A DNA stretch of 11,867 nt from Candidatus Hodarchaeota archaeon (GTDB taxonomy: Archaea; Asgardarchaeota; Heimdallarchaeia; Hodarchaeales; YT1-057). Location of the stretch: assembly GCA_016839955.1 (NCBI GenBank), contig JAEOTI010000254.1, forward strand, positions 1 through 11,867, read 5' to 3'. The notes beneath the pieces were generated by a model. It had not been told where the DNA came from. It ran no database searches and was given only the letters and a program-made list of their open reading frames with translations. The translations under genes were made by a program, and so were the position numbers. Shown here one piece after another: positions 1 through 11,016 of the stretch. Position 1 is the first letter of the stretch; the number at the start of each line of letters is the position of its first letter.

Positions 1-1154
1 AATTTCGTAGTCTTGTCTATTTTAAGTCCATATTGTTCAGCAATATTAGTTGAAAAGCTTGGAGGAAGTACTGCTGCTGAGAGTATAACTTTATCTGCGT
101 TTAGATCATCAAGTGATTGGGTTAATGTATTTTCTACACTAACTGAAAGGGCATCACCTTCATTTTCCTCTATTAAAGCGGTAGAACATCGAATGAATTT
201 AACACCATTTAACCGAGCATCTCGATATATCAATTCAGATAAACCAAGAGTTCTGATATCTTGATGTATAATTGTGACATCCGTATTTCCTGATTCAATT
301 AGTGATGTCGCTTCAGAGATCGCTGTTGTACAACAGTATGCTGAGCAGTACCAACGACCTCCTTCTTCCTTACTTCCGTAACACTGAGAAATAATAATTC
401 TCTCGTTTGTTGGGGGATTTATTTGTCGAAACTGTTTCCAGGTTAGAATTTGAGGGTGTTTAATTTCTTGGTGAGGGAGTTCTTCATAATCTCCTGAAAA
501 AACTACAATTGGAGCTTTAATTATTTGCTTATTATCAATTTTAAGTTCGAAGCTACCGATATATCCTTCTAATTCCGCAGTTTGAACATTTTCATAAATA
601 CTACAGCTCTCACGAACAGATTTCACCATCGACTTGAGTTCTTGTTTTGCTTCTTCAAAATTTGGAACCATATATACAAAATCTGTATCATCGATTGCCT
701 TTGGGGTAACAAGAGAAACTTTAATGCCTAATTTTGATAAATGATGAGCTGTTGTTAAACCTGAAATTCCTCCCCCAATTATAAGACAACTCTCAGACAG
801 TGGAATTGTTAGTTTTTCAATAGGTTGAGATTTTTCTAAATTGTGAACCGCACCAGAAATTAATGCAAGAATTGCAGATGTTATTTCTTCTTCTTTTGCA
901 TCACATTCTACAAGATATTTCATATCAATAAACGCGGGTTGTTTGTTTCTGTCATGAAAAAGAGGATAGAGATAATTCTGTGAACATGCACAAACAATCG
1001 CATTATCATCTAATTCTTGAACTTGATGACAAAGATCTTTTAGAACTATAACGTTTGAAATTCCTGCTATTTCTTTAATAGATTTAGAAAGCCCTTCGGT
1101 GTCAATTTTACTGGAGAGTGTTTCACCACAGGTACAAAGATAGACAGATACCAT
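1..1154 (-). CDS. Divergent HdrA-like protein, C-terminus beyond the window
   Basis: The reading frame is open from the ATG at 1154 to the window edge (384 codons visible). A GGAGGT ribosome binding site sits 7 bases upstream, and the gene starts 16 bases after the preceding hdrA-like gene. Residues 1-110 match the HdrA N-terminal domain, with CTCG at 7-10, Cys42 and an ACSQ segment around Cys57 (HdrA has CHCG and ACSP). A Rossmann motif GGGISG lies at 127-132. The HdrA core cluster motif C-x11-C-x3-CC is intact at Cys258, 270, 274 and 275, followed by the family's QDIRTLG stretch near 298. It lacks the inserted double ferredoxin domain and the DCxxC motif of canonical HdrA. The acidic residue ending the second Rossmann strand is also missing (LVTP instead of LVEK), so FAD binding is doubtful. 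Role inferred: a third HdrA-type electron-transfer subunit of the Hdr complex encoded here. Family assignment is firm; function is not. Confidence 0.85.
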   Translation of the reverse strand, partial: MVSVYLCTCGETLSSKIDTEGLSKSIKEIAGISNVIVLKDLCHQVQELDDNAIVCACSQNYLYPLFHDRNKQPAFIDMKYLVECDAKEEEITSAILALISGAVHNLEKSQPIEKLTIPLSESCLIIGGGISGLTTAHHLSKLGIKVSLVTPKAIDDTDFVYMVPNFEEAKQELKSMVKSVRESCSIYENVQTAELEGYIGSFELKIDNKQIIKAPIVVFSGDYEELPHQEIKHPQILTWKQFRQINPPTNERIIISQCYGSKEEGGRWYCSAYCCTTAISEATSLIESGNTDVTIIHQDIRTLGLSELIYRDARLNGVKFIRCSTALIEENEGDALSVSVENTLTQSLDDLNADKVILSAAVLPPSFSTNIAEQYGLKIDKTTK

Positions 1155-1170
1155 CGTTACAACCTCCATA

Positions 1171-2352
1171 TTATTGAAGAGCCTCAATTATTTCTAATGC
1201 AGTGGCTTTGGCTTGGTTAGTTATCTGTGGAATGTTTAAAATAAGCTCTCCGACTCTAAATGCGTTTATTCCTTTCCAAACATCTTCCATAGGTTCAGTA
1301 GTGGCTAAATCAGTAGAAAGAACAACAATATCCGTTTCAATATTAATAACTTTTCCAATACGAGTATCTTCTAGAACAGCGTGCATTTTACCGCTTAGTT
1401 GCTTCTCAATAAATCCTGGTCTCCCTCTGATGAACTTTACACCTGCGTTTCGGGCATTTATGTAAAGTTCCTCTAAATTTCCCAAAGTACGAATATCCAT
1501 GAAGGCAACAGTTACGTCAACACCAAGTTCTTTGAGCTTAATTGCATGTTTCAAACTATACGAACAACAAATAGAGGAACAGATTTCAGTTGATCGAACA
1601 TCCCTGGATCCCGCACATAGAACTATAAGAGTACTCTCAACTTTTGTTCCAGTTGGGCTTAGGAAGTCTTTTACTTTCATTGTATCTAGTAAATTTGCGA
1701 GTTCTATTTGTGTAATTACTTCTTCATATTCTTCAAGACCGTAAGGGATGGTTGTAGGTCTATTTTCTGTGAAACCTGTTGCTAATACGACTGTATCGAA
1801 TTTATGTTCTTCTCGTTTTCCTTGGTCTTCTAAATTGAATGCATCAACCGCACAAGCCTCAAGACACTCACGTTTACACTTTTCTGGGTCACATTTAATA
1901 TCATCAACCCAATATGCTCTTGGTATTGCTTGAGGATGAGGAAACGAGATTGCTTTCAATGGACAAGCATCAACACAACGTCCACAAGCAATACATTTCG
2001 CTGGGTTAATTTTTCGGGGTGCCCATTCAATTGTTGCCAAAATATTACCATTTTGCTTTTTTACATCAGTTACTTTTGCAGGACATGCAATTGAAAGGTT
2101 AGATTCAAATTCTAGAGCTGCGCGGTATTGGCATTTTCGAACAGACTCTGCTGAAAAAGAATTCCCTAAAGGCTCATAACACAAAGCACAGTCATTTGTA
2201 GGAAAAACAAACCCCAGTTCCTTTAGTAATCCTCCAACTGAATTGCTTTTCTCAACTAAAGTAACCTTTATCCCAAAATCAACTAGTGATTGGGCTGTTG
2301 TCGTACCTGCAATTCCTCCCCCAATAACAAGAACTGAAGTATCTGGTTTCAA
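1171..2352 (-). CDS. Short HdrA-like (QmoA-like) flavo-iron-sulfur protein
   Basis: This 393-residue protein belongs to the HdrA family but lacks the N-terminal domain and the C-terminal double ferredoxin domain, giving a length and layout close to QmoA of sulfate reducers. FAD-binding features are present: GGGIAG at 11-16, LVEK ending at 35 and VGG at 39-41. DCALC (Cys55, Cys58) replaces the HdrA DCSAC motif. A ferredoxin motif lies at Cys120, 123, 126 and 130. A second group at Cys154, 159, 163 and 167 has unusual spacing. The core cluster motif C-x11-C-x3-CC is at Cys246, 258, 262 and 263. The segment that in HdrA precedes the last FAD contact is shortened, and the protein stops where the thioredoxin-reductase-like domain ends. 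The start is TTG, directly preceded by an in-frame TGA, with GGAAG 8 bases upstream. The gap to hdrB is 53 bases, so the genes are probably cotranscribed. Role inferred: an electron-transferring partner of HdrBC. Confidence 0.9.
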   Translation of the reverse strand: MKPDTSVLVIGGGIAGTTTAQSLVDFGIKVTLVEKSNSVGGLLKELGFVFPTNDCALCYEPLGNSFSAESVRKCQYRAALEFESNLSIACPAKVTDVKKQNGNILATIEWAPRKINPAKCIACGRCVDACPLKAISFPHPQAIPRAYWVDDIKCDPEKCKRECLEACAVDAFNLEDQGKREEHKFDTVVLATGFTENRPTTIPYGLEEYEEVITQIELANLLDTMKVKDFLSPTGTKVESTLIVLCAGSRDVRSTEICSSICCSYSLKHAIKLKELGVDVTVAFMDIRTLGNLEELYINARNAGVKFIRGRPGFIEKQLSGKMHAVLEDTRIGKVINIETDIVVLSTDLATTEPMEDVWKGINAFRVGELILNIPQITNQAKATALEIIEALQ

Positions 2353-2405
2353 TCAACCTACTTCCTTTGAAAAAGATAAAGCGTGTATTACGAGGAAGAA
2401 TGTTC

Positions 2406-3284
2406 TTAAGCTTCTGCCTTCTGAAGGAATTTCGGTTTAATCCTGTGTTGGTTAATTCCTAATTCTTTTTGATCTATTCCCATAGCGATTCCTAGTAATT
2501 CGGGGTAAAACATGACAGGTATGTTAAAATCTTTTCCTAAATCCTTTCTCATCAAAAGCTGTCCAACCTCATACTGCAAATAACAAGTAGGACAATATAA
2601 AATCATCATATCTGCTCCTGTGCCTTTAAGTGCTTCAAGTTTCTCAGCAGATGCTTTTAATGCGATGGAAGGATCGGCAGTCCGGCTACCAGCACCACAA
2701 CATAAACCCTTGTGAAGATAGGGGACAGACTCGATTCCAAGAGCGGATATAAGTTCATCGAGTGTGTTGGGTCTTTCAGGATCATCAACTTGAAGTATGT
2801 CAGCTGGACGAAGTAAGTGACAACCATAGTGTGCCCCAGCTTTTAATCCAGAGAAAACATCATTGACAAGTTTTTCTTTGATTTTAGGAATACCAATTTC
2901 GTTATAGAGTAACTGGTGAAGATGAATTACTTCTGAAGTTCCTTTGAACTCCTTATCTATCTGTTTTAAGTGTTCATTGACATTTTCGTTCAACTCAGGT
3001 TCATGAAGAAGCTCATGCCTTGCAACAGCAAGCGTTTCAAAGCAACCATTACAAATAGTAAGAATAGGAAGATTTTCCTCCTCAGCTAAAGCGAGGTTAC
3101 GTGCAGCTAGTGTTAACCATGTCTCTTTATTGAAGGAATGAATACCTGTTGGATCGGGACAACATCCAAAGGGGATCTCATCAACAAACTCGACTCCGAA
3201 TTGAGGAATTGTTTTACGAACAGCTAATTCAAAGAATGGTAAACGCCAGGGAATTGTACAGCCTAAAAATAAAGCATACTTCAT
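2406..3284 (-). CDS. hdrB: Heterodisulfide reductase subunit B
   Basis: HdrB is the catalytic subunit that reduces disulfides in methanogens (CoM-S-S-CoB) using two noncubane [4Fe-4S] clusters held by CCG domains. Both CCG domains are complete in this 292-residue protein. The first has Cys9, Cys41-Cys42, Cys78 and Cys81; the second has Cys155, Cys195-Cys196, Cys231 and Cys234. Length is normal for the family. The ATG overlaps the hdrC stop by four bases (ATGA), indicating translational coupling and a stable HdrC-HdrB pair. It should act in the cytoplasm, since no membrane segment is present. The natural substrate is unknown here: the window shows no methanogenesis gene, and in non-methanogens HdrBC-type proteins serve other disulfides or sulfur compounds. 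The neighbouring glutaredoxin-like protein is one possible partner. HdrD and GlpC-type fusions are excluded because HdrB and HdrC are separate proteins. Confidence 0.95.
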   Translation of the reverse strand: MKYALFLGCTIPWRLPFFELAVRKTIPQFGVEFVDEIPFGCCPDPTGIHSFNKETWLTLAARNLALAEEENLPILTICNGCFETLAVARHELLHEPELNENVNEHLKQIDKEFKGTSEVIHLHQLLYNEIGIPKIKEKLVNDVFSGLKAGAHYGCHLLRPADILQVDDPERPNTLDELISALGIESVPYLHKGLCCGAGSRTADPSIALKASAEKLEALKGTGADMMILYCPTCYLQYEVGQLLMRKDLGKDFNIPVMFYPELLGIAMGIDQKELGINQHRIKPKFLQKAEA

Positions 3285-3796
3285 ACAGCTTCAACCTCCT
3301 GTTTTGGTTGGGATGTTAGTTTCTCAAGAGCTTCTGTATAACCAGTAGCATCCAAGAGCTTTTTTATCTCATCTACTGGTGGTTCTGTCCATTTTGGTAA
3401 ACCCCATTTTTCTCGACGTTTTTCGACTGCTTTAGAAATTTGAGCGGTAATACCAGTTTCCATAATTGCTGTAGCTTCTGCTATTAAGGCGCTTGGAGCT
3501 TTTCCAATTTTTACAGCAAGATTCTTAATCTCTACAAGGATATGCATAAGGTCTACGCCTTGTGGGCATCTTGCAGAACAAGTTCCACAGAGACTACAAT
3601 ACCAGATATTACTATCTTCAGTTAATACTCCTTCATACTCCCCCAATAGTAACTTCTCAACGAGAAGGCGTGGATTTCGTGTTTGATCAACTCTAAAGAC
3701 TGGACACCCCGCTGAACATGTTCCACATTGATAACATAACCGTAATTTTATCGCTAATTCCTGTAATTCCGAAATCGCTTCCTCACTTTGGGACAT
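3281..3796 (-). CDS. hdrC: Heterodisulfide reductase subunit C
   Basis: HdrC is the small iron-sulfur subunit that passes electrons from HdrA to HdrB. The 171-residue protein carries two classical ferredoxin motifs of the Cx2Cx2Cx3CP type, at Cys21, 24, 27 and 31 and at Cys67, 70, 73 and 77. A helical tail follows, without transmembrane segments, so this is the soluble form and not the membrane HdrE/QmoC-linked type. The start is ATG with GGAG 9 bases upstream. Its stop overlaps the hdrB start by four bases. It lies 222 bases after the glutaredoxin-like gene, and that gap contains a possible small ORF. The gap could hold a second promoter, but I see no convincing TATA box there. Confidence 0.95.
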   Translation of the reverse strand: MSQSEEAISELQELAIKLRLCYQCGTCSAGCPVFRVDQTRNPRLLVEKLLLGEYEGVLTEDSNIWYCSLCGTCSARCPQGVDLMHILVEIKNLAVKIGKAPSALIAEATAIMETGITAQISKAVEKRREKWGLPKWTEPPVDEIKKLLDATGYTEALEKLTSQPKQEVEAV

Positions 3797-3859
3797 AGAT
3801 TATTTCTCCAATAGATTCAGTCAAGTTAATTTTTATCAAAATTGCATGTCTGAGGTCTT

Positions 3860-3967
3860 TTAACTAATCTCAGCAATCGGAAATTGACGACTCATAAAAA
3901 CTCTACCATCCGTCATGTGGTCAATTTGGTACCACATGACCCATTTGAATTTAGGTTTATCGTTCAT
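3860..3967 (-). CDS. Possible 35-residue small protein inside the hdr operon
   Basis: A short frame runs from ATG at 3967 to TAA at 3860, in the gap between the glutaredoxin-like gene (51 bases upstream) and hdrC (63 bases downstream), on the operon strand. The predicted peptide begins MNDKPKFKWVMWYQIDHM and ends PIAEIS. Its composition is mixed and protein-like, with two tryptophans and four methionines, unlike the Lys/Asn/Ile-rich output of random AT-rich DNA. There is no clear ribosome binding site: only GAG directly abuts the ATG, so translation would depend on coupling or readthrough from upstream. A perfect 10-base inverted repeat (3912-3940) lies inside the frame and offers a competing, regulatory explanation for the region. 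I recognise no family. Confidence 0.4.
   Translation of the reverse strand: MNDKPKFKWVMWYQIDHMTDGRVFMSRQFPIAEIS
3912..3940. repeat. Perfect 10-bp inverted repeat, possible operator or RNA hairpin
   Basis: The arms GTCATGTGGT (3912-3921) and ACCACATGAC (3931-3940) are exact reverse complements separated by 9 bases. The element lies between the glutaredoxin-like gene and hdrC, inside the possible 35-codon ORF. It could be a binding site for a dimeric regulator, or an RNA hairpin that sets HdrC/HdrB levels relative to the upstream genes. No T-run follows on the transcribed strand, so a terminator role is not supported. Confidence 0.6.
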
Positions 3968-4018
3968 CTCGATACATAAATTACTGATTTTTTTCTAAAA
4001 TCTCAGTAAATTAACAAT

Positions 4019-4795
4019 TTATAATTGTTCTATTTCGTCTAAAATTAGTGAAAGATCCAAGGGACGTTGGGTAATGTTTAGAAAATTATCCAATTGCATA
4101 GCACACTCCCAAGCTGTTATAAAGGTCGAAATTATTTCCATTTTTGGTAAAGAAACATTTGACGTAATTGACCAAGTCCCATAGATTATATCACCTAACA
4201 ATTTTGCTTTCATGAATCCTCCATCATTTCCTATAAACCAACTATTTAGTGTTTGAATATGCCCTATTTGGGCATTTTCATGATTTAATAACTCTTGGAA
4301 AGCTGGACGGTCATCAATTCGAATATTTTCAAAGTCGCTCAAGAAAAAAATGAGTGAAGTTGAGACTATTTGCCAAAACTGGTTAGGAATTTGATGTGGC
4401 ACATTAGAAATAATGAATGAAGCTGTTCCCGGGGAACCAGCTTCAAAAATACGGTTAATAAGATGTTTCATCAATCCTGAATATGCTTCAAAGCAAGAAA
4501 AGGTATGTACTCGTGAAGCCTTACTTTCATAGGTTTGCCCTAAAACTAGGGGCCAAATTTCTTCTATTTCAGGGATTCCTGGTAGTAAAACATCTCCTAT
4601 TAAGACACTAGGTATTGTAATTTTGCCATATACGTCAAGATAAGGAGAAAGATCTTCTTGAGTCGAATCAAGTGGACTGACTATAACATTCTTTTGTTCA
4701 ACAATAGGTTGTAGACGATCGAGGAGTTCAGAACACCATAAGCAATTAGGTTTGGTGAATACCGTGATCTTCAGAGTTTCCAAACCTAGCTCCAT
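4019..4795 (-). CDS. Glutaredoxin/thioredoxin-like protein with unknown C-terminal domain
   Basis: Residues 8-85 form a glutaredoxin-like thioredoxin fold: strand KITVFTKPN, redox motif CLWC (Cys18, Cys21) and the cis-proline motif TIPSV (Pro62). The motif differs from the usual CPYC of glutaredoxins. Residues 95-258 are a soluble, mostly helical region that I do not recognise, with isolated Cys101 and Cys231. The gene sits 32 bases after hdrA and ahead of hdrC and hdrB, so a role in thiol-disulfide exchange with the Hdr complex is a reasonable inference, not shown. Start choice: the ATG at 4795 has no good ribosome binding site. A TTG at 4783 (codon 5) has GGAG 6 bases upstream and would begin right at the first strand, so it may be the true start. 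No signal peptide; cytoplasmic. Confidence 0.75.
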   Translation of the reverse strand: MELGLETLKITVFTKPNCLWCSELLDRLQPIVEQKNVIVSPLDSTQEDLSPYLDVYGKITIPSVLIGDVLLPGIPEIEEIWPLVLGQTYESKASRVHTFSCFEAYSGLMKHLINRIFEAGSPGTASFIISNVPHQIPNQFWQIVSTSLIFFLSDFENIRIDDRPAFQELLNHENAQIGHIQTLNSWFIGNDGGFMKAKLLGDIIYGTWSITSNVSLPKMEIISTFITAWECAMQLDNFLNITQRPLDLSLILDEIEQL

Positions 4796-4827
4796 CCTAT
4801 AAGATTCTGTGGATTGATAATGTGTAA

Positions 4828-6804
4828 CTAAGTCGCTAATTTCTCTTTTACAGATCGAGATTCTTCAAGGATTCCGTCAATCTGAGACAATAGTTGGTCA
4901 TCTGTAAAGTGAAGTAGATCTATTGCTCCAGTTGGACATCCTGCGGCACAAGATCCGCAGCCATGACAGAGAGCTTCATTTACTTCTGCTATCTTGGCTC
5001 CAAGGGATAATGCGTTGTATGGGCAAAGCCTTGTACAGATTCCACAGGAGATGCATAAATTTTCATCGATTATAGGAATGAAAGGTTCAATTTCGGCTTT
5101 TCCTTGAACTAATAGCATGGCTGCACTTGACGCAGCAGCTTTAGCTTGAGCAACCACATCGGGAATATCTTTCGGCCCTTGAGCCATACCACAAATAAAG
5201 ACACCCCTAGTCGCTGTGTCCACTGGAGCAAGCTTTGGGTGAGATTCAAGAAAGAAACCGTCAGAACTTAAGGAAATTCCAACTTTCATCGCTAGGTCAA
5301 GAGTATCACTATTTGGTTCTACGCCAGTCGATAGAACTACCATATCATACTCTAAAGTTAGAATTTCTCCAAGTAGGGTGTCTTCTGCCCGAACTATCAG
5401 ATTGTCTCGTTCAGGGTTCTCATTAATCTCAGCAACTCGACCCCGAATTAACCGAACTCCATATTCTCGCTGTGCGATCTCATAAAATTCTTCGTAACCT
5501 TTTCCAAATGCTCTGATGTCCATATAATAAATATGAACTTGCATATCAGGATATTTCTCCCTTAACATCCTAGCATGCTTTAGAGCATACATACAACATA
5601 CTCGACTACACCAGGGATTACGTTCTACATCCCTACTTCCAACACATTGTAAGAATGCAATTGATTTTGGTTTCTTGCCATCCGCTCGAATAACTTGCCC
5701 TTCAGTTGGTCCAGCAGCGTTCAACAATCTTTCCATATCTAGGCCAGTTAATACGTGTGGACTTTTTCCATATTTCCAAAGTAGGTCATTGGAAGGATCA
5801 TATTGTTGAAAACCAGAGGCTACTATAATTAAACCCGGATTTATTTCAATTATTTTCTCTTCATCATCAAAGTTTAACGCTTCTGGCTTACAAGCTTCCG
5901 CACACTTTTTACATTTAATACATTGGTCTATATCTATTATATACTTATTCGGGATCGCTTGAGGGAATGGAATGTAAATAGCTTTTCGTGGTGCAAGTCC
6001 CATGTCAAATTCATTTGGAACAGTAACAGGACATACGTCCACACAATCTCCACAGGCATTACATTTCTCTTTATCCACATACCAGGGATTTTGACGAATT
6101 TTAACCTTAAAATTGCCTACATATCCTTCAACTTCGAGTACTTCGGAATTTGTAATCAGTTCAAGACTTTCTGCCCAGCTGATATCGCTCATTTTAGGAG
6201 TGAGAATACACGCACTACAATCCATGGTTGGAAAGGTTTTGTCGAGACGAGCCATGTTGCCGCCTATGGAAGGTGTTTTTTCTACTAACCAAACTTTGAA
6301 TCCTTCTTCAGCAAGGTCAAGAGCAGCAGAAATACCGGCAATGCCTGCACCAATAATTAGAACAGATTGGGCTACAGGAACATGGTTTACTTCTAATGGT
6401 TGTAATTTTGCTGCTTTACCAACAGCCATTCGAATAAGATCCTTTGCTTTCTCTGTGGCTATCTCAGGTTCTTTCATATGTACCCATGAGTCATGTTCAC
6501 GAATGTTAGCCATTTCTACAAGGAATGGATTAACACCAGCTGCAGCAAGAGTTTTTCGAAAAGTTTTTTCATGAAGACGAGGAGAACAAGCTGCAACTAC
6601 AACAGCATCGAGATTTTCCTCTGCAAGACTTTCACGAATGAGATTTTGACCTACCTCACTACACATGTAAGCATAGTTTTTTGCTACTACGTTAGGTAAA
6701 GTATTCGCGTAGCGAACAACCTCATCAATATCTACAACACCTGCAATGTTTGTTCCACAATGGCAAGTAAAAACTCCAACTCGTCTGGCATGACCATGTG
6801 TCAT
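4828..6804 (-). CDS. hdrA: Heterodisulfide reductase subunit A, full length
   Basis: HdrA is the flavin subunit where electron bifurcation takes place in Hdr complexes, coupling ferredoxin reduction to disulfide reduction. This 658-residue protein has every expected part: N-terminal domain with CHCG (Cys14, Cys16), Cys48 and ACSP (Cys73); FAD Rossmann motif GAGIAG at 152-157 with LVEK and IGG; DCSAC at Cys196 and Cys199; inserted ferredoxins at Cys248/251/254/258 and Cys295/298/301/305; core cluster C-x11-C-x3-CC at Cys387, 399, 403 and 404; a GMAQGPKDIP stretch near 539; and C-terminal ferredoxins at Cys584/587/590/594 and Cys613/616/619/623. No MvhD domain is fused and no selenocysteine is apparent. 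I chose ATG at 6804; an in-frame TTG at 6822 would add six residues, and neither has a clear ribosome binding site. A TATA box lies upstream at about 6861-6869. It is the first gene of the hdr operon. Confidence 0.95.
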   Translation of the reverse strand: MTHGHARRVGVFTCHCGTNIAGVVDIDEVVRYANTLPNVVAKNYAYMCSEVGQNLIRESLAEENLDAVVVAACSPRLHEKTFRKTLAAAGVNPFLVEMANIREHDSWVHMKEPEIATEKAKDLIRMAVGKAAKLQPLEVNHVPVAQSVLIIGAGIAGISAALDLAEEGFKVWLVEKTPSIGGNMARLDKTFPTMDCSACILTPKMSDISWAESLELITNSEVLEVEGYVGNFKVKIRQNPWYVDKEKCNACGDCVDVCPVTVPNEFDMGLAPRKAIYIPFPQAIPNKYIIDIDQCIKCKKCAEACKPEALNFDDEEKIIEINPGLIIVASGFQQYDPSNDLLWKYGKSPHVLTGLDMERLLNAAGPTEGQVIRADGKKPKSIAFLQCVGSRDVERNPWCSRVCCMYALKHARMLREKYPDMQVHIYYMDIRAFGKGYEEFYEIAQREYGVRLIRGRVAEINENPERDNLIVRAEDTLLGEILTLEYDMVVLSTGVEPNSDTLDLAMKVGISLSSDGFFLESHPKLAPVDTATRGVFICGMAQGPKDIPDVVAQAKAAASSAAMLLVQGKAEIEPFIPIIDENLCISCGICTRLCPYNALSLGAKIAEVNEALCHGCGSCAAGCPTGAIDLLHFTDDQLLSQIDGILEESRSVKEKLAT

Positions 6805-6860
6805 CGTTAAAACCACAATCAAGCAATTAATGTGAATCGAAGAAATAAGAATTATAGAAT

Positions 6861-6935: not shown

Positions 6936-7448
6936 TTAATATTCAAACGAAATTCCAATAAATAATGCAATAATCCAAGTTACTACATATACTATAATAA
7001 AAACTGCTGAAATTTCATCGTTGTTGAATTCTGGTTCTTTTCCTAGGTATTTCCGCGTGTAGAAAAGTATTCCACCAGTTATAATTGGTATACCTACATA
7101 TGTCAATAAAAGTAAACCAACTGTAACAATTGGATCGAAACCCCACTCGGAAACTAAAACATCATAGATTACCAGAATAGGTTGAGCAAGAATTGCAACA
7201 ACCAAAACTAATATGGCAATTTGGAAGAGGATAGGTACAATGAAGGTCATAAATGCAATTACACTAAAAACAATGACAAGAATTCCACCTATGATATAGG
7301 TCAATAATCCTTCATCGTCATCTGATGCTGTTTTTATTTTTTCCATGGGTTTGTAGGCCTTAGGGTCTGAATGAGCATTCAAATCCTTTGAAGAGGATGT
7401 ATGGGAAGTTTCATCTTCATCGAAGACAAATTTCAATTTTTTACACAT
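6936..7448 (-). CDS. Four-helix membrane protein of unknown function
   Basis: This 170-residue protein is not recognised. Residues 1-46 are polar and acidic with Ser/Asp/Glu-rich stretches and no signal peptide, so the tail is probably cytoplasmic. Four hydrophobic segments follow, at about 48-68, 72-95, 107-130 and 146-167. A short basic loop (TRKYLGK) between the third and fourth is consistent with the even-numbered topology, leaving both ends inside. No catalytic or metal-binding motif is seen; the only cysteine is Cys2. The start is ATG at 7448 with no clear ribosome binding site. It is transcribed in the same direction as its neighbours, between the 192-residue unknown gene and the hdr operon, with gaps of 139 and 113 bases (to the hdrA ATG, 131), so it may be a separate unit. 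Confidence 0.75.
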   Translation of the reverse strand: MCKKLKFVFDEDETSHTSSSKDLNAHSDPKAYKPMEKIKTASDDDEGLLTYIIGGILVIVFSVIAFMTFIVPILFQIAILVLVVAILAQPILVIYDVLVSEWGFDPIVTVGLLLLTYVGIPIITGGILFYTRKYLGKEPEFNNDEISAVFIIVYVVTWIIALFIGISFEY

Positions 7449-7587: not shown

Positions 7588-8166
7588 TTATCCATAAATT
7601 GAAGATCTCATTGGATATTTCTTTCGAAAAATCCTGTCAGCTTCGATTGACAATCTTCGTTCCACTTCCTGATGATAGGAACCGATTCTTCCCAAATTAG
7701 GAAAATTCAAATTTAAATATGGGCCTGCAACTACTGCATCGACTCTTCGCCTCTCAATTTCTCTAATAGGCAGTGGCTTAGTTTTAAAAATATCCTCAAT
7801 AGCCTGATCTTGAGCCATTTTGCCTTCTTGCAAAGAATCGATTATTTGATTTATGTTTCTTTGAGCGAGAGGGCGGAAACCATAGGAATGCATACCTTGT
7901 GTAATCAATTTTAAATCTTGAAGCGGAGACTCTTCTGGGATTTTCATTCCTACTCCTGTGTATTTTTGAGGATTTATTTGGACTAATTTTAACTGATAGC
8001 TATTCATTGGTCCTAAAATGACAACATTGCCGCCTAGATCAGACATAACATTCCAATCTTCTGGTGTCTGATCATAATTGTACATTATTTTCTTCATTAG
8101 ATCATCTAGTGGTTCAATTTCCATTTTTTTCCGTAAATCTTTGTGAGTCTTTTTCAACTCAAACAT
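7588..8166 (-). CDS. Hypothetical soluble 192-residue protein
   Basis: I do not recognise this protein. It has no signal peptide, no transmembrane segment and no cysteine. The first 30 residues are charged and probably helical (LKKTHKDLRKKMEIEP). The middle (about 40-75) looks like a small alternating strand region, and the C-terminal third is arginine-rich, with REIERRR near 136 and EVERR near 168. No enzyme motif stands out. The ATG at 8166 directly abuts a GAGAGG sequence, which is too close to serve it. A TTG at 8157 (codon 4) would have that site at a normal 9-base distance and may be the real start. It lies 98 bases after the M24 gene, behind a TATA-like TATTATAT at 8241-8248. Confidence 0.7.
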   Translation of the reverse strand: MFELKKTHKDLRKKMEIEPLDDLMKKIMYNYDQTPEDWNVMSDLGGNVVILGPMNSYQLKLVQINPQKYTGVGMKIPEESPLQDLKLITQGMHSYGFRPLAQRNINQIIDSLQEGKMAQDQAIEDIFKTKPLPIREIERRRVDAVVAGPYLNLNFPNLGRIGSYHQEVERRLSIEADRIFRKKYPMRSSIYG

Positions 8167-8264: not shown

Positions 8265-9449
8265 TTAAATTTGGATTGTTAAGGAGTTTAAATCCCTTGG
8301 ATAATTAATGGTTAGAACTTCATTACCTTCTTCAGTAACAAGTACAGTATCAGAATGGCGGAATCCACCAAAATCCAATTCGTAAATTCCCGGTTCTACA
8401 GTTAATACCATTCCAGGTTGCAATTTTGTTTCTAAACCTCTATCCAAAAAGGGTCTTTCATGTCCCTCTAGTCCAATCCCATGTCCAGTATGGTGAAGAA
8501 CCAAATGATCAAATCCACTGCTTTTGAAACTCGAAAAGGAAGCATTGTCTACATCTGCACAAGTAGCACCTGGTTTAATTGTATCTATTGCTGCAGTTTG
8601 AGCATTGAGCATAGCAGTGAAATAGCGCTCTTGCTTAGGGGTTGGTTGACCAATAATCATTGTCCGCTCTAATTCTGAATAATAGTGAAAGATATCCGCA
8701 CTAGCCCCAGTTACAAGTATATCTCCTGCTTTCATTGTTAAATTCGAAAAAATGGCATGTGGAAGTGCAGAATTCTTTCCAATTTGTCCTCTAAATCCGG
8801 CATAAGCGGGTAGCATTGAGGGAGACGCATCAGGTAATTCCTTTTGTAATTCTTTTGAAGCTACTTCAGTTGCTTTCAGGGTGACTTCCCCTTCGGATTT
8901 TCCGTTAGCACATTCCTCTTGGAGAATCTTGTGAGCCCTTTGACCCCATTTTGCGCTTGTTTTAATGAACTCAATTTCTAAAGGCTCTTTAATAATCCTC
9001 AGATCAGGAATAAAAGTTCCACAATCGAGAAATTTCCACCCGTTTAATATTTCAGTGAGTAATGGACCTTCATAACCCCAAAATCCAGGAGCTCCTTTTC
9101 CATCTGCTGTGATTATTTTGTCCCCCTTTACTGTTTTTTCCAAAACAGATGCTAGTAGTTTCATTGGATGTTTAAAATCCGGATATTCATAATAATTTTC
9201 TATGTTGGTGATCCATGGAACATTTTTTTCCCAATGAGTGATTTCCAGTTGGGGAAGGAAAATTATAGGTTCTTCATCGATGGGAGTAAGTAATGCAATC
9301 GGTCTTTCAGTAGGGATAAAACGAAATCCTGTCAAATAATAAATCGTCTTTACACTAAAAAATAAACCTAAATTTGCTTTTTTCTTTTCTAGATTAGAAA
9401 CTACTTTTGTGAGTCGAGATTCAAAGATTTCTTTGGTTAATTTCTTCAA
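8265..9449 (-). CDS. M24 family (creatinase/Xaa-Pro peptidase fold) protein with degenerate metal site
   Basis: This is a two-domain M24 protein: an N-terminal creatinase domain (about 1-150, with IYYLTGF near 36-42) and a C-terminal pita-bread domain containing TGHGIGLEGHE (321-331) and VEPGIYE (351-357). Active M24 peptidases bind two metals through Asp, Asp, His, Glu and Glu. Here the positions read Gly248, Glu259, His323, Glu352 and Ser366, so three of five differ. Dimetal peptidase activity is therefore doubtful. A metal-free hydrolase, as in creatinase, or a monometal enzyme is possible. Start: the frame stays open up to 9569, but that would overlap the carboxyltransferase by about 100 bases. 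The TTG at 9449 has GGAG 9 bases upstream, lies 16 bases past the upstream stop and gives a family-like start of 394 residues. An ATG at 9485 is the alternative. It is probably cotranscribed with the carboxyltransferase. Confidence 0.9.
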   Translation of the reverse strand: MKKLTKEIFESRLTKVVSNLEKKKANLGLFFSVKTIYYLTGFRFIPTERPIALLTPIDEEPIIFLPQLEITHWEKNVPWITNIENYYEYPDFKHPMKLLASVLEKTVKGDKIITADGKGAPGFWGYEGPLLTEILNGWKFLDCGTFIPDLRIIKEPLEIEFIKTSAKWGQRAHKILQEECANGKSEGEVTLKATEVASKELQKELPDASPSMLPAYAGFRGQIGKNSALPHAIFSNLTMKAGDILVTGASADIFHYYSELERTMIIGQPTPKQERYFTAMLNAQTAAIDTIKPGATCADVDNASFSSFKSSGFDHLVLHHTGHGIGLEGHERPFLDRGLETKLQPGMVLTVEPGIYELDFGGFRHSDTVLVTEEGNEVLTINYPRDLNSLTIQI

Positions 9450-9465
9450 ATAATATCGCTCCACT

Positions 9466-11016
9466 CTATAGTGGGATATTTCCATGCTTTCTTGGAGGTC
9501 TAGCTTTCCTCTTTCCCTGTAACATCTGCAGTGCCTTATAGACCTTCTGGCGGGTAAATCGAGGCTCAATCACGTCATCAATGAAGCCGTGAGACGCAGC
9601 AATCCATGGACTTGCGAATTTTTCACGATAGTCATCGATTCTTTTTTGAAGAGCTTCTTTTGGATCCTTTGCACTAGCAATTTCTCTTCTAAAGATAATA
9701 TTGGCAGCACCTTCTGGACCCATTACAGCACATTCAGTGGTTGGCCATCCAAAAACCATGTCTGCACCGATGTGTCGGCTACACATAACTACATAGGCTC
9801 CACCATAAGCCTTCCGTGTTATTACCGTTATAAGAGGAACAGTTGAATCAGCATAGGCATAGAGAATTTTAGCTCCATGTCGAATTATTCCACGATGTTC
9901 TTGATCGACACCAGGTAAAAAACCAGGTACGTCCATGAAGGTAAGTAAAGGAATATTGAATGCATCACAGAAACGTACAAATCGAGCAATCTTATCTCCA
10001 GCATCTATATCAATCGTACCAGCTAAATGATTTGGTTGATTCCCGACGATTCCTATTGAACGACCGCCAATTCTTCCAAAACCAGTAACAGCATTTCTAG
10101 CAAACAGTGGCTTGGCTTCAAAAAAATCTCCATTATCTACAACGTTTTTAATAACATCCCTCATATCATATGGCTTATTAGGATCAATTGGAACAATGTT
10201 ATCAAGGTCTGGAGATTCTCGAAGTGGGTCATCACCTGTATCAATGATTGGTGGGTCTTCCATATTATTAGAGGGTATAAAACTGAGAAGTGATCGAATT
10301 ATATTGAAACATTGTTCTTCATCAGTTGCCATTAAATCAGCAACCCCACTCACACTATTATGTATTAGGGGTCCTCCCAGAGCTTTAGACGTTGTTTCTT
10401 CACCAGTAGCTGCTTTAATGACCTGTGGTCCAGTAATATGCATGAAACTAGTTTTATCCACCATGATCGTAAAATCAGTAACAACTGGAGAATAAACTGC
10501 TCCTCCCGCACAGGGTCCCATTATTGCAGAAATTTGAGGTATTACCCCCGATACCAGTGTATTTCGATAAAAAATATCACCATAGGATCCCAAACTAAGT
10601 ACACCTTCTTGGATCCTGGCTCCAGCTGAATCATTCAAACCAATAAAAGGTGCACCTTGATCTAAAGCTAAATCCATTACCTTACAGATTTTTTTTCCAA
10701 ACATATCTCCTAATGCTCCCCCAAAGGCAGTGAAATCTTGAGAGAATAAGAAGACTAATCGTCCATCAATTAATCCGGATCCTGTAATTACTCCATCTCC
10801 AAGGATTTTCTTTTTCTCCATATCAAAATCTGTAATATGGTGTGTAGCGAATGTATCAATCTCCACAAACGTTCCGGGATCGAGTAGTCGATCAATTCTT
10901 TCACGAGCAGTTAATTTTCCCGCTGCACGTTGTTTTTTTATCCGTTCTTCTCCTCCACCTAGGAATACTTGCTTTCGTTTTTCCCGGAGTTGCTGATTTT
11001 GTTCTGATTTTGTCAA
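9466..11016 (-). CDS. Acyl-CoA carboxyltransferase (propionyl-CoA carboxylase beta / methylmalonyl-CoA decarboxylase alpha)
   Basis: This 516-residue protein is full length for the biotin-dependent carboxyltransferase family that moves CO2 between biotin and propionyl- or acetyl-CoA. The N-terminal crotonase-like domain has LNDSAGARIQEGV (127-139) and the first oxyanion-hole region GPCAGGAVYSP (167-177). The C-terminal domain has MDVPGFLPG (361-369), RKAYGGAY (401-408, second oxyanion hole) and GWPTTECAVMGPEGAA (423-438). The residue after GGAY, an Asp in characterised propionyl-CoA-specific PccB, is Val409 here. No biotin carboxylase, biotin carrier or sodium-pump subunit is in the window, so carboxylase and decarboxylase roles cannot be separated. 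The start is TTG with GAGG 7 bases upstream; an in-frame stop lies shortly upstream and no early ATG exists. It is the first gene of its unit, followed by the M24 gene. Confidence 0.93.
   Translation of the reverse strand: MTKSEQNQQLREKRKQVFLGGGEERIKKQRAAGKLTARERIDRLLDPGTFVEIDTFATHHITDFDMEKKKILGDGVITGSGLIDGRLVFLFSQDFTAFGGALGDMFGKKICKVMDLALDQGAPFIGLNDSAGARIQEGVLSLGSYGDIFYRNTLVSGVIPQISAIMGPCAGGAVYSPVVTDFTIMVDKTSFMHITGPQVIKAATGEETTSKALGGPLIHNSVSGVADLMATDEEQCFNIIRSLLSFIPSNNMEDPPIIDTGDDPLRESPDLDNIVPIDPNKPYDMRDVIKNVVDNGDFFEAKPLFARNAVTGFGRIGGRSIGIVGNQPNHLAGTIDIDAGDKIARFVRFCDAFNIPLLTFMDVPGFLPGVDQEHRGIIRHGAKILYAYADSTVPLITVITRKAYGGAYVVMCSRHIGADMVFGWPTTECAVMGPEGAANIIFRREIASAKDPKEALQKRIDDYREKFASPWIAASHGFIDDVIEPRFTRQKVYKALQMLQGKRKARPPRKHGNIPL

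What the first reader, a model, noticed from the sequence alone, without database searches (positions are those of the whole stretch)
1..6804. One hdr operon with three different HdrA modules
Seen: a full-length HdrA, a short HdrA without its N- and C-terminal domains, and a third HdrA that keeps the N-terminal domain but lacks the inserted ferredoxin. All three keep the core cluster motif C-x11-C-x3-CC. They share a strand with a single HdrB and HdrC. Known: methanogen HdrABC uses one HdrA type, and Qmo of sulfate reducers uses two HdrA-like flavoproteins. Inference: this may be a hetero-oligomeric Hdr complex in which the two reduced modules form a pseudo-HdrA dimer half with a different electron donor, or a fixed non-bifurcating branch.
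Basis: partly seen in the sequence, partly recalled or inferred. Interest (0 to 1): 0.75.

Follow-up and report, generated by a model that had tools for sequence, protein, structure and literature searches.

The report
Three-HdrA operon with a split pair
An archaeal energy-metabolism operon carries one ordinary copy of an electron-handling protein plus two cut-down copies whose missing parts fit each other like two halves, so those two probably work together as one lopsided enzyme, a design proposed before for other archaea.

Summary
On the minus strand lie hdrA (full, 658 aa), a glutaredoxin-like gene, hdrC, hdrB, a short hdrA (393 aa) and a divergent third hdrA. The third gene is cut by the contig end; its relatives (54-60% identical) run on into a C-terminal ferredoxin and an MvhD domain, so it is QmoB-shaped, not simply reduced. 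Key result: the short HdrA lacks the N-terminal cluster domain but keeps the cysteine (Cys197 of 5odc) that ligates that cluster in the partner subunit; the third HdrA keeps the domain and has lost the cysteine. The same split holds in 39 of 39 short-then-partner gene pairs examined and 62 of 62 two-FAD fusions (related sequences, not independent trials). hdrC-hdrB-short-partner recurs in Asgard archaea, often near a full HdrA. Phylogeny rejects orthology with the QmoA/QmoB sampled. Best reading: short and third form an obligate asymmetric HdrA heterodimer on HdrBC; the full HdrA is a linked extra. The idea is already published for ANME tandem HdrAs (PMC9012536). New variant of a known kind, moderate interest; bifurcation and substrates are unknown.

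The parts
4828..6804 (-). full-length HdrA, 658 aa: N-terminal cluster domain, FAD/TrxR domain with Cys197 equivalent (Cys199), inserted 2[4Fe-4S] ferredoxin, core cluster, C-terminal 2[4Fe-4S] ferredoxin; no MvhD domain (an earlier TTG start at 6822 is possible)
   Evidence: NF040770, 910 bits; 5odc_A, 833 bits, residues 8-648
6208..6234 (-). FPTMDCSAC motif of the full HdrA; last Cys = equivalent of Cys197 in 5odc_A
6586..6765 (-). N-terminal-domain cysteines 14, 16, 48, 73 of the full HdrA
4019..4795 (-). glutaredoxin-like protein, 258 aa, with CLWC; weak glutaredoxin match in residues 10-76, rest unknown; two relatives found
   Evidence: (TIGR02180, 19.7 bits against a cut-off of 87); low-confidence model
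3281..3796 (-). HdrC, 171 aa, two CxxCxxCxxxC motifs; overlaps hdrB by 4 bases
2406..3284 (-). HdrB, 292 aa, two complete CCG motifs (Cys 9/41/42/78/81 and 155/195/196/231/234)
1171..2352 (-). short HdrA, 393 aa, QmoA-shaped: no N-terminal cluster domain, FAD site, Cys197 equivalent kept (Cys58), inserted ferredoxin with 8 Cys, core cluster, no C-terminal ferredoxin
2179..2205 (-). FPTNDCALC motif of the short HdrA; last Cys (Cys58) aligns with 5odc_A Cys197
1852..1995 (-). inserted ferredoxin of the short HdrA: Cys 120/123/126/130 and 154/159/163/167 (second set with spacing C-x4-C-x3-C-x3-C)
   Evidence: (all eight invariant in 16 sequences)
1564..1617 (-). core cluster motif C-x11-C-x3-CC of the short HdrA
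3..1154 (-). third HdrA, QmoB-shaped, cut by the contig end: N-terminal cluster domain kept, FAD site, no inserted ferredoxin, Cys197 lost, core cluster kept; relatives continue with C-terminal 2[4Fe-4S] and MvhD
984..1136 (-). N-terminal-domain cysteines of the third HdrA (Cys 7, 9, 42, 55, 57)
330..383 (-). core cluster motif C-x11-C-x3-CC of the third HdrA

Best explanation
The short and the third HdrA are the two halves of one obligate, asymmetric HdrA heterodimer, and the neighbouring hdrC-hdrB encode its HdrBC arm. The full-length HdrA is a linked, separate homodimer-type HdrA that may use the same HdrBC. Shown by sequence: the short subunit has no N-terminal cluster domain but keeps the Cys197 ligand; [quoted passage not shown] If the ligand scheme of the solved HdrA holds, one bridging N-terminal cluster can form per heterodimer, and neither subunit could build it as a homodimer. 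[quoted passage not shown] Input and low-potential output would thus be split between two subunits. Whether it bifurcates, confurcates or runs as a simple conduit is not decided.
For: Cys197 of 5odc_A is the second Cys of FPTNDCSIC; PMC9012536 (section 15 part 1) says it ligates the N-terminal cluster of the other HdrA and that tandem ANME HdrAs show the complementary loss. The window pair shows it. In 39 of 39 short-then-partner pairs the short has Cys at the 197 column and lacks the N-domain and the partner has no Cys there; all four N-domain Cys columns are filled in 32 of 39 partners. Control: of 38 unpaired single HdrAs with the four N-domain Cys, 33 have Cys197; the five that do not start within 900 bases of the upstream edge of the fetched stretch, and two of them have a short HdrA beside them. 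62 of 62 two-FAD fusions show the same split. hdrB directly precedes the short gene in 18 of 34 pairs outside the qmoC loci, and in two more seen with longer flanks. Short and partner path distances correlate (r 0.84 for 25 pairs, 0.89 for 17 main-group pairs; 0 of 5000 permutations each). The window's two proteins each sit beside those of the Thorarchaeota pair in the tree.
Against: The third gene is truncated, so its ferredoxin and MvhD are inferred from relatives. The pairs and fusions are related to each other, so 39 and 62 are not independent counts; the pairs were picked by gene length and many loci by a pattern that includes part of the FPTxD motif of the short HdrA, so only the partner's loss of Cys197 is free of selection. 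Tree co-variation also follows from shared descent, and the supports that join window and Thorarchaeota (93/96 and 86/92) are not at the top level. No co-purification, structure or multimer model exists for this pair. In 14 of 34 pairs hdrB is not directly upstream: hdrC and hdrB lie downstream in five, an HdrC-like match alone in two, neither was seen in seven, some with short flanks. One partner (L179) has lost the N-domain cysteines too, one (L178) keeps two of four; 11 Thorarchaeota partners plus L179 have lost the core cluster and L169 keeps three of its four cysteines.
Confidence: 0.7

Rival explanations
1. All three HdrAs belong to one larger complex: the full HdrA dimerises with, or docks on, the short:third unit and both share the single HdrBC.
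For: The genes share a strand and compact spacing with one hdrBC in the window. An HdrA flagged as full (N-domain and Cys197 motif, or over 600 aa and over 400 bits to the window's HdrA) lies on the same strand within 7 kb in 10 of 39 downstream pairs; four more Thorarchaeota loci have a 1134-1135 aa HdrA there and two an HdrA cut by the locus end.
Against: In Thorarchaeota L001-L005 and Baldrarchaeum L015 two hdrCB sets are present; L180, L181, L182, L175 and L176 have hdrCB-short-partner with no full HdrA in stretches of 14-16 kb. In the window a 222-base gap and the glutaredoxin-like gene separate hdrA from hdrCB. The full HdrA has its own N-domain and Cys197 and needs no partner.
Confidence: 0.15
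2. It is a true Qmo system (QmoAB-HdrBC type) that feeds APS reductase in sulfate metabolism.
For: Short and third have the QmoA and QmoB domain layout, including the complementary loss, as read in five loci with a qmoC over its cut-off. QmoAB-HdrBC is known from Gram-positive sulfate reducers and others (PMC10504309 and PMC3569383, passages).
Against: AU tests reject short+QmoA and partner+QmoB (p 1.6e-06 and 0.001 for all shorts and partners; 0.00055 and 0.00015 for the main groups); QmoA and QmoB group with each other (100/100). HdrC matches the qmoC model at 51 bits against a cut-off of 300. No aprBA or sat among the ten ORFs scanned, but the contig is short.
Confidence: 0.04
3. The short:third unit with HdrBC is a fixed, non-bifurcating electron conduit, for example from an MvhD-linked donor to a disulfide or thiol protein, rather than a bifurcating enzyme. 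This is a rival to the mechanism, not to the heterodimer.
For: Only one N-terminal cluster and one inserted ferredoxin remain per heterodimer; in 11 Thorarchaeota relatives the partner has also lost the core cluster. A glutaredoxin-like gene lies in the operon.
Against: The pair together still holds every element of the published bifurcating path: C-terminal ferredoxin and MvhD (in relatives), FAD motifs in both subunits, core cluster, N-terminal cluster ligands, inserted ferredoxin.
Confidence: 0.3
4. The short and third HdrAs are decaying duplicates without a role.
For: They have lost domains relative to the full HdrA.
Against: All eight inserted-ferredoxin cysteines and the four core cysteines are invariant in 16 short HdrAs; both proteins have 54-68% identical relatives; losses are complementary and recurrent.
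Confidence: 0.03

Closest known systems
Tandem HdrA pairs HdrA5/6 and HdrA12/13 and fused HdrA3/4 of ANME archaea (Chadwick et al. 2022, PMC9012536; section 15 part 1 of 2 and passages seen)
   Same: Complementary presence/absence of N-terminal cluster domain and Cys197 between two HdrAs, proposed heterodimer; MvhD and HdrBC partners; more hdrA than hdrBC genes.
   Different: Here with a directly preceding hdrCB, an additional full HdrA and a glutaredoxin-like gene, in what is probably an Asgard archaeon. In the 62 fusions I examined the half without N-domain comes first, the reverse of the order that paper gives for HdrA3/4. Orthology to HdrA5/6 or 12/13 was not tested.
QmoA/QmoB of QmoABC and QmoAB-HdrBC (PMC10504309 passages)
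   Same: Two unequal HdrA-like flavoproteins: one short without N-domain, one with N-domain, C-terminal ferredoxin and MvhD; complementary split seen in five qmoC-bearing loci; HdrBC in place of QmoC in some organisms.
   Different: Separate placement in the tree; no QmoC and no sulfate genes seen in the contig; extra full HdrA.
HdrABC-MvhADG of methanogens (5odc; 7bkb; 8rvu)
   Same: Full HdrA, HdrB and HdrC of the window are recognisable relatives with intact cluster motifs.
   Different: The solved methanogen complexes are dimers of one HdrA type (PMC9012536 passage); no MvhA/MvhG or FdhA/FdhB among the ten ORFs scanned here.
MetFV-HdrABC-MvhD complex of Moorella (as described in a PMC9012536 passage)
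   Same: Fused two-HdrA protein with complementary Cys197/N-domain loss.
   Different: Fused, bacterial, with MetFV; none of this in the window.

Membership tests
Asymmetric (heterodimeric) tandem HdrA as proposed in PMC9012536 | One HdrA lacks the N-terminal cluster domain and keeps Cys197; the adjacent one keeps the domain and lacks Cys197 | tested here: met
   window pair; 39 of 39 downstream pairs; 62 of 62 two-FAD fusions
Asymmetric (heterodimeric) tandem HdrA as proposed in PMC9012536 | The two proteins physically form a heterodimer with one shared N-terminal cluster | not testable with these tools
   multimer modelling and biochemistry not available
Asymmetric (heterodimeric) tandem HdrA as proposed in PMC9012536 | Same gene family as ANME HdrA5/6 or HdrA12/13 | not tested
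QmoABC | QmoA layout (short HdrA, no N-domain) and QmoB layout (N-domain, no inserted Fd, C-terminal Fd, MvhD) | tested here: met
   for the window's own third gene the C-terminal part is not visible and is taken from relatives
QmoABC | Phylogenetic grouping with QmoA and QmoB | tested here: not met
QmoABC | QmoC membrane subunit | tested here: not met
   HdrC is 171 aa and scores 51 bits against the qmoC cut-off of 300; genes beyond the contig end unknown
QmoABC | Linkage to aprBA/sat | tested here: inconclusive
   none among the ten ORFs scanned; the contig ends inside the operon
HdrABC (methanogen type) | HdrB with two CCG motifs and HdrC with two [4Fe-4S] motifs | tested here: met
   profile scores are below the equivalog cut-offs
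HdrABC (methanogen type) | Full four-domain HdrA with N-domain Cys and Cys197 | tested here: met
   met by the gene 6804-4828 only
HdrABC (methanogen type) | Single HdrA type in a symmetric dimer | tested here: not met
   three distinct HdrAs, two of them complementary
HdrABC (methanogen type) | Reduces CoM-S-S-CoB | not testable with these tools
   substrate unknown; PMC11291895 passages speak of an unidentified heterodisulfide in Asgard archaea

The most novel reading that the evidence does not exclude
HdrA has more than once been split into an 'output' subunit (inserted ferredoxin plus Cys197) and an 'input' subunit (N-terminal cluster domain, C-terminal ferredoxin, MvhD), here in an Asgard-type lineage separately from Qmo, giving an asymmetric flavin-based bifurcating enzyme with one bridging cluster. 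In this lineage it is encoded with HdrBC, a full HdrA and a glutaredoxin-like protein, so the disulfide end may serve a protein thiol system instead of a coenzyme disulfide.
Probability: 0.3. Interest if true: 0.6.

Novelty: new variant of a known kind. Interest (0 to 1): 0.42.

Why it matters
The HdrA symmetry-breaking proposed from ANME genomes becomes a sharp, testable rule (one N-terminal cluster and one foreign cysteine per dimer) that held in every short-then-partner pair and two-FAD fusion examined here, in a group placed apart from the sampled Qmo. It gives a concrete target, Cys58 of the short subunit, for asking how asymmetric HdrA complexes route electrons in archaea whose redox partners are largely unknown.

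Tried and rejected
Rejected: reading the third HdrA as lacking a C-terminal domain; its relatives have one and the contig simply ends. Rejected: filing the pair as QmoAB; architecture fits, phylogeny does not. 'Short HdrA' is not one clade: the group needs two changes in both trees, because the shorts of five loci (L037, L065, L167, L169, L171) group with full HdrAs. One origin of the partners is not ruled out (16% of 200 bootstrap trees).

Led nowhere: viral contigs (one pattern match, no relative); first genome-contig scan with the close-relative alignment A3 (24 pattern matches, no relative by tblastn). In 227 held genomes of the phylum the best short-HdrA match was 390 bits (8 candidates scored per genome), so no close orthologue seems to be held. 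The structure model of the glutaredoxin-like protein is poor (mean pLDDT 47.8), so no fold search was made; its C-terminal part stays unidentified. No whole genome is held for the window.

Not done: multimer modelling; a tree with type II Qmo, sHdrA or named ANME paralogues; a census of the cassette per genome. Of the 40 unique pairs, 25 went into the quick tree (68 rows) and 22 complete pairs into the careful tree and the distance test, with the window pair and two presumed pairs (P0103/P0002, P0101/P0004) added. The careful tree left out seven rows (L179_B0, both L178 rows, both L006 rows, P0111, P0112). Of 72 proteins of 900 aa or more, the 62 with two FAD motifs at the expected spacing were assessed as fusions; 10 were not.

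Papers: PMC9012536 section 15 part 1 of 2 plus passages; PMC10504309, PMC3569383, PMC11237513, PMC10553843, PMC11227280 and PMC11291895 passages only; PMC12054007 searched for six terms, none found; all others as search listings only. I found no description of the Asgard pair, but most papers listed there were not opened and the library is open-access only.
Full report
WHAT IS THERE. The window is itself a complete contig of 11867 bases (contig length given for P0100 and P0220). On its minus strand, in order of transcription, lie a full hdrA (6804-4828), a glutaredoxin-like gene (4795-4019), hdrC (3796-3281), hdrB (3284-2406), a short hdrA (2352-1171) and a third hdrA (1154-3) that runs off the end. 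Spacing is compact (32, 222, -4, 53 and 16 bases), which suggests but does not show one transcript. Profiles support the identities, though every score is below the curated equivalog cut-off. The full HdrA matches 5odc_A at 833 bits over residues 8-648. HdrB holds two complete CCG motifs and HdrC two [4Fe-4S] motifs. The core motif C-x11-C-x3-CC is present in all three HdrAs.

THE THIRD GENE IS NOT SIMPLY REDUCED. Its best relatives (P0001-P0005, 54-60% identical) are 646-659 aa and go on, past the point where the contig ends, into a C-terminal 2[4Fe-4S] ferredoxin and a FlpD/MvhD domain (PF02662 at 66 bits in P0002). Source names among the relatives are Thorarchaeota and Hodarchaeales/Hodarchaeota, so the window probably comes from an Asgard archaeon (inference). 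P0002 and P0103 both show a contig length of 85852, and P0004 and P0101 both 5801, which suggests that third and short genes are linked there too.

COMPLEMENTARY LOSS. PMC9012536 (section 15 part 1) states that in HdrABC-MvhADG one ligand of the N-terminal cluster of HdrA comes from Cys197 of the other HdrA, and that tandem ANME HdrAs show complementary loss of the N-terminal domain and Cys197, suggesting heterodimers. In 5odc_A, Cys197 is the last Cys of FPTNDCSIC. The window's short HdrA lacks the N-domain and keeps this Cys (FPTNDCALC, Cys58); the third HdrA keeps the N-domain cysteines and has no Cys at this place; the full HdrA has both. So short and third could build one complete bridging cluster together, and neither could build it alone.

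HOW GENERAL. From the loci I collected adjacent HdrA-like genes of 330-480 aa and 540-840 aa: 49 pairs, 40 unique. One (L016, 825-aa HdrA upstream of the short gene) keeps Cys197; that short gene also has a downstream partner. In 39 of 39 the short lacks the N-domain and has Cys at the 197 column, and the partner has no Cys there. The four N-domain Cys columns are all filled in 32 of 39 partners, three in the five QmoB (their spacing is CxxC), two in L178, none in L179. Selection: pairs were chosen by length, and one search used a pattern that includes part of the FPTxD motif, so the traits of the short gene are partly selected; the partner's loss of Cys197 is not. Control: of 45 unpaired single HdrAs, 38 have all four N-domain Cys and 33 of those have Cys197; the five that do not start within 900 bases of the upstream edge of the fetched stretch, and two of them (L089, L021) have a short HdrA beside them. 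Of the other seven, six have Cys197 and one has not. Fusions of short and partner in one protein: 62 of 62 with two FAD motifs show the same split, short half first. These are related sequences, not independent trials.

GENE ORDER. Outside the qmoC loci there are 34 downstream pairs. hdrB directly precedes the short gene in 18, and in L175 and L176, longer stretches of two further pairs. In the other 14, hdrC and hdrB lie downstream within 7 kb in five (L020, L022, L177, L178, L179), an HdrC-like match alone in two (L016, L169), and neither was seen in seven (L017, L018, L019, L062, L166, L167, L171), some with short flanks. A full HdrA lies on the same strand within 7 kb in ten of the 39 pairs (L001-L005, L015, L016, L022, L023, L179); four more (L006, L008, L012, L013) have a 1134-1135 aa HdrA, and two are cut by the locus end (L009, L011). 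In Thorarchaeota L001-L005 the order is hdrC-hdrB-short-partner-(304-319 aa ferredoxin/MvhD protein)-full hdrA-hdrC-hdrB; in Baldrarchaeum L015 hdrC-hdrB-hdrC-hdrB-short-partner-full hdrA-mvhD. L180, L181, L182, L175 and L176 have the cassette without a full HdrA in 14-16 kb. So the pair, often with hdrCB in front, is the recurring unit, and the full HdrA is a frequent extra. The window's exact order was not seen in the fetched loci.

PHYLOGENY. In a careful tree of 61 rows and 341 columns QmoA and QmoB of three qmoC-bearing loci group together (100/100). The window's third HdrA joins the Thorarchaeota partners (93/96), and the window's short HdrA joins the Thorarchaeota shorts (86/92); neither reaches the star level. 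AU tests reject short+QmoA and partner+QmoB: p 1.6e-06 and 0.001 with all shorts and partners, 0.000545 and 0.000151 with the main groups, which were drawn after the tree was seen. Five loci (L037, L065, L167, L169, L171) have short HdrAs that group with full HdrAs (100/98), so the short form has more than one place in the tree. Short and partner path distances correlate (r 0.84 over 25 pairs; 0.89 over 17 main-group pairs; 0 of 5000 permutations as high); shared descent contributes to this.

MECHANISM. Shown: cofactor ligands and their distribution. Taken from PMC9012536 for methanogen HdrABC-MvhADG: electrons pass from MvhD through the C-terminal ferredoxin to the flavin, then to HdrBC or, through the N-terminal cluster and the inserted ferredoxin, to ferredoxin. 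Inferred: in the short:third heterodimer the input side lies on the third subunit and the ferredoxin side on the short one, with HdrC-HdrB for the disulfide. Donor, disulfide and direction are unknown. In 11 Thorarchaeota partners of 651-654 aa the core cluster is gone, so there HdrBC could be served only by the short subunit (inference). The glutaredoxin-like protein has two relatives found by a word-based search of about 5.8 billion proteins and a conserved C-x-W-C; a role as thiol partner of HdrB is a guess.

KNOWN OR NEW. The tandem-heterodimer idea is published for ANME (PMC9012536); multiple hdrA copies in Thorarchaeota and Lokiarchaeota and fused HdrAs with MvhD in archaea are reported (PMC11237513 passage); QmoAB-HdrBC is known. 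Searches for Asgard with Qmo, HdrA or heterodimer terms gave no description of this pair that I saw (open-access library, most listed papers not opened). I rate it a new variant of a known kind.

Noticed in passing
L008:14140-17544 (similar lengths in L006, L012, L013): Thorarchaeota HdrA of 1134 aa carries an insert of about 450 aa in the inserted-ferredoxin region that matches NF009410 'NAD(P)-binding protein' (497 bits) and several glutamate synthase small-subunit models; only L008 was scanned. Resembles the NfnB-like insert reported for ANME-1 HdrA9-11.
   Followed up: partly
62 fusion proteins in the fetched loci, e.g. L164:1290-4295, L163:3567-6554: Short and partner HdrA occur as one polypeptide, short half first; the order is the reverse of that stated for ANME HdrA3/4 in PMC9012536.
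   Followed up: partly
many phylum genomes, e.g. G161:C87:5170-6243: HdrA frames with one in-frame TGA; consistent with the selenocysteine HdrA reported for Asgard archaea (PMC11227280 passages). In solved chain 9sfi_A the Cys197 position reads X.
   Followed up: no
window 4019-4795: Glutaredoxin-like 258-aa protein with only two relatives found; unknown C-terminal part.
   Followed up: partly
L001:11267-13231 and other Thorarchaeota partners of 651-654 aa: Partner HdrA has lost the core cluster cysteines and is followed by a 304-322 aa protein; the one scanned (L001) has ferredoxin and MvhD matches.
   Followed up: partly
window 9466-11016 and 8265-9569: Carboxyl transferase (TIGR01117, methylmalonyl-CoA decarboxylase alpha type, below cut-off) and an M24 peptidase upstream on the same strand; the two frames overlap as called.
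   Followed up: no
window 6936-7448 and 7588-8166: Two unidentified small proteins upstream of hdrA with no Pfam or NCBIfam match at E 0.001; the first looks by eye like a membrane protein.
   Followed up: no
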